From Apus apus (taxonomy: Eukaryota; Chordata; Aves; Apodiformes; Apodidae): a DNA stretch of 64,000 nucleotides. The position numbers and the translations under genes were made by a program. Positions 22,101-31,100 of the stretch are shown here, piece by piece. Numbering within the stretch: position 1 is the stretch's first letter; the number at the start of each line of letters is the position of its first letter. The stretch covers positions 124,001 to 188,000 of the forward strand of contig NC_067300.1 in NCBI RefSeq assembly GCF_020740795.1. The letters are read 5' to 3'. The notes under the pieces are model-generated. The model made no database searches. It was not told the origin of the DNA and saw only the letters and a program-made list of their open reading frames with translations.

Positions 22101-25100
22101 ACTGACCCAATTCGAGGCCTGGCTGCTCTTGTTGGTGAGTTTATAATATCAGTTTGGTCTTTTGTTTAACCCCTTGCTTTCTACAAGCACCCGAAAGTAG
22201 GGCTGTTGTGTTGCTGGACTGGTTGTCTGTGGTAGGAGCTGGTACAGCTCCAGCCTCCTCCTGGGACATTTTGCTCCGTGTTGGCTTTGTCTGTCAGGAT
22301 GTCCGATGTGGACCTTGTGTTCATTCTCTCACCTTTTCAAACTTATCCTCGTCTGGTTTTTCAGCCATTGCAGCCCCTTGGACTGTCCATGAGATGTGGA
22401 CTTAGAAGGTACTTGGTTCTCTGGCTCAAGCCATCCCAGTGCATGTTCAGTGAAGGAAGTTTTCTGGACTGCTTGTTGAGGACGAGGTTGACAACACAGT
22501 GCTCTAGGGTCTTAATTCAGTGGCAAGACACATCATGTATATTTATCTCTTTGAGTACCTAATTTGTCAGACAGCAGTGTTTGTAAGGAATTTATTACAA
22601 GTGGGATGCAAAGCTCTTTTGAAGACTTCCTCATAGAATCTCTCAAGTTGCTTTTAATAGTAGAGTTGTTACAATACTAATGTCATAGCAAACACTGTCA
22701 GATCTTGACTTATTCACATCCTACTTCTATTCTGAGACAGAGGAGGACTCTTGTTTCTTTGTGATGAACAAGATGCAGGTAGATTTCTTCCTGCTGCCCT
22801 TGGGGGAGCACTTTATGCCTTTTCCCATCTCACTAGCTAAGTTCACTTGGGACAGTTTGATCATGCAAGAGGTGTGATCCACCAGAGCTTTAGGCAGGGG
22901 ACTGGCTTTTCTCCATATCTGCCCCTCCGTGTCATAGAGGAAAACACTGTCTTCTTTCTGCATGTGCTGCAGTGACCCACCTCCTGCCAGGTAGAGCATA
23001 GACTCATGGGCTGTGATGCTGAACTGGCAGCAGTTGAAGGGTGACAGCATGAGTGTTGTCCACTGGTTGCTTGCAGGACAATAACACTCTGTCTCTGTGA
23101 CAGGAATCCATTCCGCCACCTGCAAAGAGCCAGAACAACACTCACCCATCAGATCACACCTCAAGTGGGTATCATTGTCATGTTAGGCTCTCTTGGTTCA
23201 TGATAAAGGACCTCAGTGTCTTAACATCTGCTTGAATTCACCAGGGCTCAAGGTGCCACATTTAGCAATCAGAGCCTCAAAAGACACTGAAAACAAAACC
23301 ATGGCTTCAAAAGAGCTTTCTTCTTGGAAAATCAGGAACAAGCTGAGCAGGGTGCCATGGGTTCCTGCTGGAATCTGCATAGCCCAACTGCTGCTGCTCT
23401 CTGGACATTAAACATGTTGCAAAGGAAATGTGGACTATTGATCTGAGTTTGACTATTGAGCTGAGTTTGTGTTGTCTGGAGGAATTCAAAGACAGCCTTG
23501 ATGTGCAGTTTCTCTTTATGGATTTCTGTCCCATCCTCAGTGAACAATTCCCTGCTCTAAGATGTCTGCTTGCCTTCATAAGAAACTGCACCCTCATGGT
23601 AAATCAGGGCTCTGAGTTTTACACTTGCAAATGGAAATTGCTGCATGAGCTCTGAAAACTCAGTTGTCTTGTTTTAAGGGAATGGGAGTCTCCTAGAGGG
23701 AGCCTTTGGATCCTCTCAGGTCTCTTCTGCCTTGCTGTCCCCAGGAGGCTGGGCAGTGCTTGCTCTCCTCTTTCGGAGATGGGAAACCCCAGATTGGAGA
23801 CACTTCATTTGATTTGCAGGACTTGAGCCCATCTTTCAAAAAATATGGGCTGGTGTCCTCACTTCAGTGCATTCCCCTGCCTGTCTGCCAGTGGTCCTCC
23901 CCCCTCTCAGCTCAGGAAGAGCAATCAAGAGGGCAGGGTGCTTTGGGCAGCTCTGTGACCAGTTTCACCTTCAGCTTGTCTCTGGTAGCAGGCTGTGCCT
24001 CCACCGTATGTTTGTTTTAAAAAATGCCTTTGTACCCTAGTAAGTCGAGTGTGACAACAGGGCAGCTTCTCAGCACACGGCCATCATGGCAGGCACATCT
24101 TCATAAGCTTGTAGGCCTGATGGCACCTGTGCCAGCCCTCTTCAGAGACCAAAACTAATGAAATTACTGCTGGAGTAAAACAGTCTGGGCCTAGCAGTAC
24201 AGAGACCCCATTTTGGATCAGATTGGGGATTAAAAAATCAAATTAACTTACTCCTTTTAGTGTCCTCCCTCCAACGCAAAAGATCCTGTCCCCGGCTGTC
24301 GCCATCCCGTGGTCACAGCGGGTAAAAGCCATGGCACTGTTACCAATCCAGCGGCGAAGGCGAGGGAGGTAGCTGTAAGTGTCTCGTAAGGTTTTACCCC
24401 CAGAGAAGCCTCCTAGAAGGGAAGCAGAAGTCTTGACAACATATCCATCGTCCTCTCTGTCACCCAGAAAACCTTCAGCAAATTAGAAAATTAGCAAATA
24501 TGATATTTTTTCTTTAAAATATCATAGAATCATAGAATGGTTTGGGTTGGCAGTGACCTAGAAGATCATCTAGTTCCAGCCTACACAATAAGCTCAGGTT
24601 TACAGTTTCACCCCATTCTGCAGAACTGATGTCGTGTGAAATTTAAAACCTGAGCTGCTTAGGTATCTGAAATAAGAGAAAGAAAAAACCCAGCCAGTTA
24701 CAGGTCTTTCTGTATAGTTTTCCACAAAATATTTCTGAATAAAGCTCTTGGGGTTATTTCAGGTGTGACCAGGAACAGCTTTACTTCACAGAATCACAGA
24801 AGGTCAGGGGCTGGAAGGGACCTCCAAAGATTATCAAGTCCAACCCCCCTGCTAGAACACAAGCAAAACTAGGGCAGATCACTTAGAAAGGCATCCAGAC
24901 AGATCTTGAAAGTCTCCAGAGAAGGAGACTCCACAGCCTCTCTGGGCAGCCTGTCCCAGGGCTCTGTCACCCTCACAGGAAAGTTCTTCCTCGTATTGAG
25001 ATGGAACTTCCTGAGCTTGAGTTTGAATCCACTGCCCCTCGTCCTGTCACAGGGCACAAGTGACAAGAGGTTGTCCCTGCCTTGTTGACCCCCAGCCCTC

Positions 25101-28100: not shown

Positions 28101-31100
28101 GCATGGGTGCATGAGAAAGAAAAATATGCTGGTTTGTCTGGCATGTTCACTGAAACCATCTAGGAAATCAGAAAATCCTGCACAAGGCGTTTTACTCTCC
28201 AGGCAGAAGGGGAAGGTCCCAGGAGCTAAAGCAGATTTTCCTTTCAAGGGCAAAAGCAAGGAAGGAGCAGTTCTGGAATGATGTGGCAGACTTTAACCAT
28301 GGCTCCTGAGCACATGTCCCATAGCAGCAGCAGTAGGGCCAGGGCAGCGTTCATGGGGTGGCTTGACTGGTTAACATGGACCATTTGCATAAAATTAGCT
28401 TAACACTGCCCTATAATGCAAGGTGAACGCCCTTCACATTCTGTATTTATCTCAATCTTTTTCTGTTAATATCCACCCAATCCACACATGTTCTGTTTGT
28501 ATGATTTGTCCCACACCTACGACAGATGTTTTATAGGACACTCAATATCCATGTTTACCGTAGCCTTGCAAAAGGCTTCACTTGTCTGCTTCTGATTGCC
28601 TGTGCATAACTTTCACACTTAATATCACATCATCTCACTTTTCCTTGCATGCTCCATACTTCAGCTTTTTGGCTAACTGAGCATTCCATCCATCTTGAAT
28701 TTCTTTCTGTGCTGTGGAAGTTGTGTATGGGTTAGGATGTCAGTTTTACAGGAGGAGCAAGGTGAGAGCAGGGCAGGACCTGCTTGTTACCAGAGAGTCC
28801 AAAAGCTGGAAACCCATGGAAAGCCCAAGGGCTTTCAGTCCTGTACAGGGCACTAAGAATATGCAAAGGTGGGAGATCTGCCATAAGCAAGAGGAATTAC
28901 TTCCCCCCCTCCCTCACACAGCCATTTTTCTAAGGATAAATGTTTCCTGTGTCTTACCTCATTTGAAGGGTGCATTTCTGTGGGATCAAATTTGCTCTGT
29001 CCTCCAATGACAAAGAGGAATTCATTGATGATGGCAACACAGTGGTTGTACACTGGCACACAGAGGTCCCCAACCTTGTGCCAGATGCTGCAGGTCTGGT
29101 CTGTAGCCCACATCTCTCTGCACACAATGTTGTTGGCTGTTCTGCCACCAGCCACAAGCAGTACAACAGACCCGGAGCGGGTGCTTGTGCTCCGACTCTG
29201 CAGGATGGGCTGAGCATATAGCTGGGAGTGATAACTCAAGGCTTCCTGCAGGTACCTGTGGCAGTCTGAATCCAGCCTCATAAGAGGCACTTTCTGGACA
29301 TATCTCTGCAGATCCCATAGAGGAATGAGAGGGAATCTTATGCGCCTTAAAATATCTGCTGCATCTTTCAGCCGCGCGCAGTCATGCTGCAGCCAGCTCA
29401 CTGCTGCTTGGAACAGCTCCAGCTCGCTGCATCCCACCATGTCAGTCCTGTCCAAAATTTCACAAAGGGTTCCTCGGTCCAGGTCTTTCAAGCACTGAGG
29501 ATCAGCCAGTATCTGCTTGTAATGCTGCCCTATGCAGTACACGGCTTTCTGTCTCAACTCTGCTGGGCCAAGTTTTTTAGCAATATTAAGGACATCCATG
29601 CAGTTCTCCGAGTTCAAGCAATCCTCCAGAAAACGAAAGCACAGCTTGATCACCTCACGAACTAGGAGGGTTTCTGCAGCTTTGAAGGTCTCCTCAATAT
29701 TCTGTAATGAGAGGTCTAGTTTGTTGGAGTAAATGAAGTTGAGGACATTCCTCAGCCCTGTAGCACTGATGGCTTTCAGCTGGACGTTGCCGTCTGGGTT
29801 CCCTGCTTTTGTCAAGTTTCCAACAAACAGGATCTTGCAGTAGTTACTTGCTGACGCTAAAATGATCTTGTGGGCTGGAAAGCAAACCCCTTCTGCCTCC
29901 AGTGTCACGTCGCACAGTGCTCTCTGTGAGCGGAGGCTGCCAAGCCCTTCCAGGAATTTGGCCAAGTAGGTGTCGGACACAAGCCGTGCCGCACCAGCAG
30001 GCGAGCTGAGCAGCATTGCACCCCAGAACTGCCACACACTCACTGCAGCTCCTGGGCAGCTTCCTGCAGCTGGACGGGCTGTTTCATGCTTGGAGGAAGC
30101 TGAGGCCACGCTGCAGAGCTGTCCCAGGGCCATGGGAAGCCACCTCCATGGCAGCCCCTGCCCTGCCCACTGAAGCCCCTGGTGCCGTGAGCCTTGTGCA
30201 GCTGCCAGAGACTGTTGGCAAGTGCTGGTGATTGCACAAAGCCCACAGTGTTTGTGGGGTTTGCCTGGGGGCTAGGACACAGACAGCCACTGGCGTAGCC
30301 ACATTGCTCCTCCTCCTCCTTGCTATCTGATAACTGCCCATCTGCACAAAAAGCAGCTCATTCCCCAGCAGCTCCCCAGCTACGCTCCACTGAGCTGCCC
30401 GGTCAGGGTTTCTTTCATCTGGGCAAGCCTGCACATGCTGTCTGTCCCTTCTTGAACAACAGTCAAAATCCTGTTTGTGCCCTGCCACCCTTGGCCTTCT
30501 AGCTAAACTTGATGCATTCAGACAACAGCTACTTTCAGGGAGGGGATGGGAGGGTCTCAGCAGTTGTGTCTCAGTCAGTTTGAAGCATCCAGCAAACGTA
30601 CGTCCTGTGCACAGCCTGCTCCTGTGGGCACTGGAGCTTGAAGGCTTGGGGCTCTCCCAAGGACAAACAAAGTGGTCACTTGGCTTCTGGCACAAGCAGA
30701 GACAACAGAGAGCACCTGGGAGCCTCCTACTCCCCCTGGGTACAGCAGAACGAAAGGGTAGTGTGCAGCCAGGCTTGAGAGCTTGTGAAGGCTTTGGCAT
30801 GGGGCAGCCCCAGCTAGGATATCTCCTCCAGAGAGAGAGCAGAGAGGTGCTGACAGGTTGGCCTTGGTTCCCTCCTTACAGGGGTGTTCTACAACTCTTC
30901 AGGCTCAGTACAGTGTTATGACATATACCAGCTGTACCAGTCTTGCGCTGACCCCACGGGCTGTGGCATCGGCTCAGATGCTGAGGCCTGGGACTACCAG
31001 GTAAGGTGTTGGAGACACCAGCAGGCTTCTGCTGCTGCCCTGGTTACCCTCTGCCCCATGACACCTCTTTCACCTCTCGTAGGTTTGCACCGAGATCAAC

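What the first reader, a model, noticed from the sequence alone, without database searches (positions are those of the whole stretch)
22135..30881. A complete BTB-BACK-Kelch gene nested antisense in DPP7 intron 8
Seen: four in-frame exons with proper splice sites, start codon, stop codon and AATAAA all lie inside one DPP7 intron on the opposite strand, filling almost all of its 8.7 kb. Known: human DPP7 spans only about 4 kb, so its introns cannot hold such a gene. Inference: either a bird/reptile-lineage gain, or an old vertebrate gene lost or moved in mammals. Opposing transcription could cause interference between the two genes.
Basis: partly seen in the sequence, partly recalled or inferred. 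Interest (0 to 1): 0.8.

Follow-up and report, generated by a model that had tools for sequence, protein, structure and literature searches.

The report
Ancient kelch gene inside DPP7 intron
A complete kelch-like gene lies backwards inside one intron of the DPP7 gene of the common swift; its relatives occur from sharks to birds but did not turn up in mammals, and databases file it under the names of other genes.

Summary
In this window (Apus apus) a four-exon BTB-BACK-Kelch gene on the minus strand lies wholly inside DPP7 intron 8 (22135-30881). Relatives occur in sharks, chimaera, non-teleost ray-fins, coelacanth, amphibians, turtles, a crocodilian, lizards and birds, and large groups branch as species do. 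No mammal, teleost, snake or passerine is named among the 120 listed hits of either search (capped lists). KLHL and DPP7 share a contig in 9 of 9 checkable species. Nesting itself was seen only in the swift. The CUL3-contact motif phi-x-E is missing in 123 of 126 members, and the disordered tail keeps a KKSTLxLFIT-like stretch in 51 of the 56 members with a long tail. I read it as an unnamed KLHL paralogue; nested antisense genes are a known kind. Function, CUL3 binding and transcriptional interference are untested.

The parts
22135..30881 (+). DPP7 intron 8, the host intron (8747 bp)
   Evidence: Donor gtgagt after 22134, acceptor ttacag before 30882; a peptide joined from the exons around it matches human DPP2/DPP7 3jyh_A, E 1.4e-74
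22074..22134 (+). DPP7 exon 8 (VGCEQILAHTDPIRGLAALV)
30882..31000 (+). DPP7 exon 9 (GVFYNSSGSVQCYDIYQLYQSCADPTGCG...)
28958..30016 (-). Nested KLHL coding exon 1: start, BTB, BACK, first kelch strands (1059 bp)
27113..27365 (-). Nested KLHL coding exon 2 (253 bp)
   Evidence: acceptor atcctag, donor gtgaca
24252..24412 (-). Nested KLHL coding exon 3 (161 bp)
   Evidence: acceptor ccttctag, donor gtaagt
22727..23119 (-). Nested KLHL coding exon 4 with TAG stop and the C-terminal tail (393 bp)
   Evidence: acceptor tttgcag
29798..29827 (-). Codons of residues 64-73, the BTB alpha3-beta4 loop where KLHL3 and KLHL22 carry the CUL3-binding phi-x-E motif; here L68-T69-K70
22591..22596 (-). Candidate polyadenylation signal AATAAA, 131 bases past the stop
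30131..30133 (-).
40561..40899 (-). ORF holding a MAN1B1 exon, on the strand opposite to DPP7 and beyond its last exon
   Evidence: ER mannosidase I, E 3.2e-26

Best explanation
The feature is a real, intron-bearing gene of the Kelch-like (KLHL) family, nested antisense in DPP7 intron 8. It is an old jawed-vertebrate paralogue that has kept company with DPP7 since about the bony-fish ancestor. It was probably lost in mammals and in some other lineages, and databases name it after KLHL9 or KLHL13. Mechanism: the protein dimerises through its BTB domain, and its kelch propeller binds a partner. Because the phi-x-E contact for CUL3 is missing, I think it most likely a weak or atypical CUL3 substrate receptor at best, acting as a binding scaffold or by pairing with related KLHL subunits. 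Shown here: gene structure, nesting in the swift, range of relatives, contig sharing with DPP7, motif absence, predicted fold. Inferred: nesting in other species, age of the linkage, loss in mammals, dimerisation, reduced CUL3 binding, function.
Against: Nesting was seen directly in one species only; elsewhere only contig sharing. Gigaxonin also lacks phi-x-E in the alignment yet is regarded as a CUL3 adaptor (recalled), and many KCTD proteins bind CUL3 without it (PMC13061254, passage), so the missing motif does not exclude CUL3 binding. Three of 126 members do show a phi-x-E pattern in the loop. Absence in mammals rests on capped lists (best 120 of 197 and of 186). No true KLHL9 or KLHL13 sequence was available for a tree. 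No expression data were examined for the swift.
Confidence: 0.72

Rival explanations
1. It is an ordinary CUL3 substrate receptor: phi-x-E is degenerate, but the BTB domain, the 3-box and the CUL3 N-terminal contacts suffice for ubiquitin ligase assembly.
For: BTB and BACK are conserved; the best full-length fold match is KLHL22 in a CUL3 complex; gigaxonin also lacks the motif; CUL3 makes other contacts (PMC11074293, passages).
Against: phi-x-E is missing in 123 of 126 members; no helix is predicted between residues 67 and 76, and residues 70-73 have pLDDT under 50; KLHL3 E85A severely disrupts binding (PMC3616122, passages).
Confidence: 0.4
2. It is the true KLHL9 or KLHL13 orthologue, as the database names say, relocated into DPP7.
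For: KLHL9 or KLHL13 are the names given by sources to most listed hits that bear a gene name.
Against: [quoted passage not shown] An orthologue in mammals should rank with those of frogs, lizards and sharks (56-65% identity), yet 0 of 120 listed hits in either search is named as a mammal, while 67 of 120 listed DPP7 hits in the same database are. One relative is named KLHL31 (P0074), so the names look automatic.
Confidence: 0.1
3. The gene entered DPP7 late: an old gene near DPP7 that came to lie inside the intron only in birds or archosaurs.
For: Nesting was seen directly only in the swift; contig sharing elsewhere does not show nesting.
Against: Contig sharing with DPP7 in birds, a crocodilian and lizards, 9 of 9, two of the contigs being 64 and 101 kb; bichir neighbours (PMC11401434, passages).
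Confidence: 0.3
4. An assembly or gene-model artefact.
For: None found.
Against: Clean splice sites and an open frame, contig sharing in 9 of 9 other species, deep conservation.
Confidence: 0.02

Closest known systems
LRRTM genes nested in alpha-catenin introns (PMC3933685, abstract and passages)
   Same: Protein-coding genes on the opposite strand in a host intron in most jawed vertebrates, with lineage-specific losses of host or guest.
   Different: That survey started from 91 pairs conserved in human and mouse, so a guest lost in mammals would not enter it; the guest here is a four-exon KLHL gene and the host is DPP7.
KLHL22 (PDB 8khp, 8k8t)
   Same: Best match by sequence over BTB to kelch (E 2.4e-63) and best full-length structural match.
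   Different: KLHL22 L83 fits phi-x-E and the protein binds CUL3 (PMC11074293, passages); here the aligned register reads L-T-K.
KLHL9 and KLHL13
   Same: Names that databases give to most named relatives.
   Different: No mammalian protein is named among the listed nearest relatives, so one-to-one orthology is unlikely; not tested by a tree.
Gigaxonin (PDB 3hve)
   Same: BTB-BACK protein whose loop also lacks phi-x-E in the alignment.
   Different: More distant (E 3.2e-23 over BTB-BACK); a different paralogue.

Membership tests
[quoted passage not shown]
Nested antisense gene | Whole coding region inside one host intron on the opposite strand | tested here: met
   30016-22727 minus within 22135-30881 of DPP7 plus
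Nested antisense gene conserved across vertebrates | Same intron position in other species | tested here: inconclusive
   Only contig sharing, 9 of 9 checkable species, and reported neighbours in bichir
CUL3 (CRL3) substrate receptor | phi-x-E motif in the BTB alpha3-beta4 region | tested here: not met
   Missing in 123 of 126; pattern hits in P0058, P0112 and P0117. In the column of K70, E stands in 1 of 126 and 42 of 126 have a gap
CUL3 (CRL3) substrate receptor | 3-box helices at the start of BACK | tested here: inconclusive
   Predicted helices 139-149 and 152-164; CUL3 contacts not modelled
CUL3 (CRL3) substrate receptor | Measured CUL3 binding | not testable with these tools
   Needs a binding assay
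KLHL9 or KLHL13 orthologue | Mammalian KLHL9/KLHL13 among the nearest relatives | tested here: not met
   0 of 120 listed hits named as mammalian and; lists are capped at 120 of 197 and of 186
KLHL9 or KLHL13 orthologue | Clusters with verified KLHL9/KLHL13 in a tree | not tested
   No verified KLHL9/KLHL13 sequence was obtained; the genome search did not complete

The most novel reading that the evidence does not exclude
An unnamed jawed-vertebrate KLHL gene, lost in mammals and perhaps also in teleosts, snakes and passerines, has stayed antisense inside DPP7 since the bony-fish ancestor or earlier. Since before sharks and bony vertebrates parted (over 400 million years, recalled) it has done without the usual CUL3 contact while keeping a short tail motif. 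That would make it a BTB-Kelch protein that works without being a CUL3 ligase subunit, for example a decoy or hetero-partner of KLHL ligases, or a protein tethered through its tail.
Probability: 0.25. Interest if true: 0.7.

Novelty: new member of a known kind. Interest (0 to 1): 0.5.

Why it matters
Human-centred lists of KLHL genes and of nested genes cannot contain a gene that mammals lack, so this one would go under other genes' names. Lasting linkage or nesting with DPP7, with what may be several separate losses, would give a natural test of whether losing an antisense guest changes host expression. A KLHL lineage without the usual CUL3 contact would also test whether ligase assembly is required throughout this family.

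Tried and rejected
My first gene model (641 residues) used an exon-3 acceptor at 24472, which adds 20 residues inside the kelch part; I rejected it for 24412, which gives the database protein.

I looked for related DNA in viral contigs and genome contigs to see the neighbourhood elsewhere; 2 and 21 stretches matched a pattern but none encoded a relative.

Paper searches for this gene pair or for a mammal-lost KLHL gene led, among the papers I opened, to one that bears on it: the tenascin paper with bichir and paddlefish neighbours (PMC11401434). The library holds open-licence papers only, so this does not show that nothing is in print. Two KLHL papers opened (PMC10146909, passages; PMC3532176, passages) did not mention this gene in the passages seen. 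The 'klhl13-like' gene of Carassius (PMC10179623, passages) may or may not be a teleost relative; I could not tell, so absence in teleosts is less sure than the lists suggest.

A resemblance of the tail motif to PCNA-binding (PIP) boxes is recalled, not tested. A recollection that KLHL9 and KLHL13 carry phi-x-E was not used as evidence.

The structural second look covered essentially the kelch domain, residues 280-582.
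Full report
Observation. The window is from the common swift, Apus apus: the four-exon minus-strand model gives a 621-residue protein equal to the database protein 'kelch-like protein 9 [Apus apus]', listed with a contig of 11,935,563 bp. The exons are 30016-28958, 27365-27113, 24412-24252 and 23119-22727, with GT-AG introns. A peptide joined from the exons around it matches human DPP7 (3jyh_A, E 1.4e-74). The 30016 start agrees with the database protein, and of the 63 members (of 126) that have residues before the recognised S-D-x-Y block, one (P0023) has more than 32. 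An AATAAA lies 131 bases past the stop, inside the intron.

Range and age. A search with the swift protein gave 197 proteins, of which the best 120 are listed. A second search, with a profile of coelacanth, catshark, sawshark, chimaera, caecilian and one unnamed sequence, gave 186, best 120 listed. Together they show sharks, a chimaera, paddlefish, gar, bowfin, reedfish, coelacanth, caecilians, salamanders, frogs, geckos and other lizards, turtles, a crocodilian and many birds. In a tree of 52 chosen members (of 126), rooted by me on the cartilaginous fishes, the large groups come out as species groups: ray-fins, amphibians, lizards, and turtles with crocodilian and birds, with the swift next to a hummingbird at support 96. 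The method was quick, 14 of 49 inner branches are open, including the order of coelacanth, ray-fins and tetrapods and much of the branching among birds, and Erpetoichthys sits on a long branch. This is the pattern expected of one inherited gene.

Absences. None of the 120 listed hits in either search is named as a mammal, teleost, snake or passerine; the two unnamed rows (P0097, P0113) fall with paddlefish and a skink in the tree. In the DPP7 search of the same database, 67 of 120 listed hits are named mammals, 5 are passerines, 4 are snakes, 1 is a teleost and 8 are unnamed. So these groups are in the database. The lists are capped and each row is a cluster at 90% identity whose other members are not shown, so these absences are evidence, not proof. 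For snakes the evidence is weak, because lizards already sit near the end of the list, and for teleosts an unplaced 'klhl13-like' gene is reported in Carassius (PMC10179623, passages).

Link with DPP7. Both protein searches give the contig length of many hits. Nine species appear in both listings with a contig length on both sides, and in all nine the lengths agree to the base: Nyctibius bracteatus 3,157,645; Columba livia 11,817,371; Indicator maculatus 100,610; Psilopogon haemacephalus 63,993; Gavialis gangeticus 27,084,703; Eublepharis macularius 72,683,480; Pogona vitticeps 11,771,604; Elgaria multicarinata 20,778,122; Sceloporus undulatus 51,754,372. Two further shared species were dropped: Pelodiscus sinensis has no contig length on the DPP7 side and Terrapene triunguis has none on either. 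[quoted passage not shown] That these fish genes are the same gene is inferred from the paddlefish member P0242. All this shows lasting linkage; it does not show nesting outside the swift. In this window a MAN1B1 exon lies on the minus strand beyond the DPP7 end.

Name. Databases call most named relatives KLHL9 or KLHL13, and one KLHL31. If they were the mammalian KLHL9 or KLHL13, the mammalian proteins should rank with those of frogs, lizards and sharks at 56-65% identity. None is listed. The likeliest reading is an unnamed paralogue.

How it may work. In KLHL3 the CUL3-binding phi-x-E motif is M83-S84-E85, and E85A severely disrupts CUL3 binding (PMC3616122, passages); KLHL22 L83 fits the same pattern (PMC11074293, passages). 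A recent compendium takes phi-x-E plus the 3-box as the general rule for CUL3 receptors, and notes that many KCTD proteins bind CUL3 without them (PMC13061254, passages). In the present family 123 of 126 members lack phi-x-E anywhere in the loop; P0058, P0112 and P0117 show the pattern. In the column of swift K70, E stands in 1 of 126 and 42 of 126 have a gap. KLHL22, KLHL3 and KBTBD2 show the motif in the alignments, while gigaxonin does not, so its absence lowers the claim of a CUL3 receptor but does not exclude it. The predicted model has no helix between residues 67 and 76. BTB, BACK and kelch columns are well conserved (mean share of the commonest residue 0.80, 0.75 and 0.79) and the tail is not (0.50), except for a KKSTLxLFIT-like stretch found by pattern in 51 of 56 members; the other 70 of 126 were left out because the tail anchor was missing or fewer than 34 residues follow it. 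I infer a dimeric kelch scaffold with reduced or atypical CUL3 binding, with tail and propeller each binding a partner.

Expression. Two contigs labelled lgn of 2232 and 2144 bp hold whole frames of 605 and 619 residues and group with paddlefish and a skink. If the gene has long introns there as in the swift, such contigs must be spliced transcripts; the intron structure in those species was not checked. The KLHL 5' end has no CpG island (observed/expected 0.14-0.38 in 300-bp steps from 29800 to 30999), whereas the DPP7 start (0.75) and the stretch 61000-61900, taken as the MAN1B1 start (0.80), are CpG-rich. That would suit restricted expression, which is inference. Interference with DPP7 was not tested.

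Comparison. The nearest known case is LRRTM inside alpha-catenin introns on opposite strands in most jawed vertebrates, with losses in some lineages (PMC3933685, abstract and passages). That study chose 91 pairs conserved in human and mouse, so a guest absent from mammals would be missed. Most vertebrate gene overlaps are reported as not conserved (PMC2151771, abstract). The finding is a new member of a known kind, with an unusual family member inside it.

Noticed in passing
P0064 (chicken), tree: The gene evolves fast in the chicken lineage: end branch 0.24 for Gallus against 0.035 for Anseranas and 0.055 for Alectura. Relaxed constraint or a change of role is possible.
   Followed up: partly
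P0008 and P0018 (Chlamydotis macqueenii): Two closely related copies are listed with different contigs (23,436,253 and 12,646,375 bp): a recent duplication, two assemblies or haplotypes.
   Followed up: no
Tail of family members, Apus residues about 600-612 (window exon 4, about 22750-22790): A KKSTLxLFIT-like motif is kept from ray-finned fishes to birds (the shark P0108 ends in a similar STLNLFVTD) in an otherwise variable, predicted-disordered tail. It recalls PCNA-binding boxes (recalled, untested).
   Followed up: partly
window 24869-25180: A reading frame that looks like a fragment of a CR1-type retrotransposon (recognised by eye) lies in KLHL intron 2, between the nested exons.
   Followed up: no
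window 9800-10700 and 61000-61900: CpG-rich stretches (observed/expected 0.75 and 0.80) mark the DPP7 start and probably the MAN1B1 promoter; the 5' end of the nested gene has none.
   Followed up: partly
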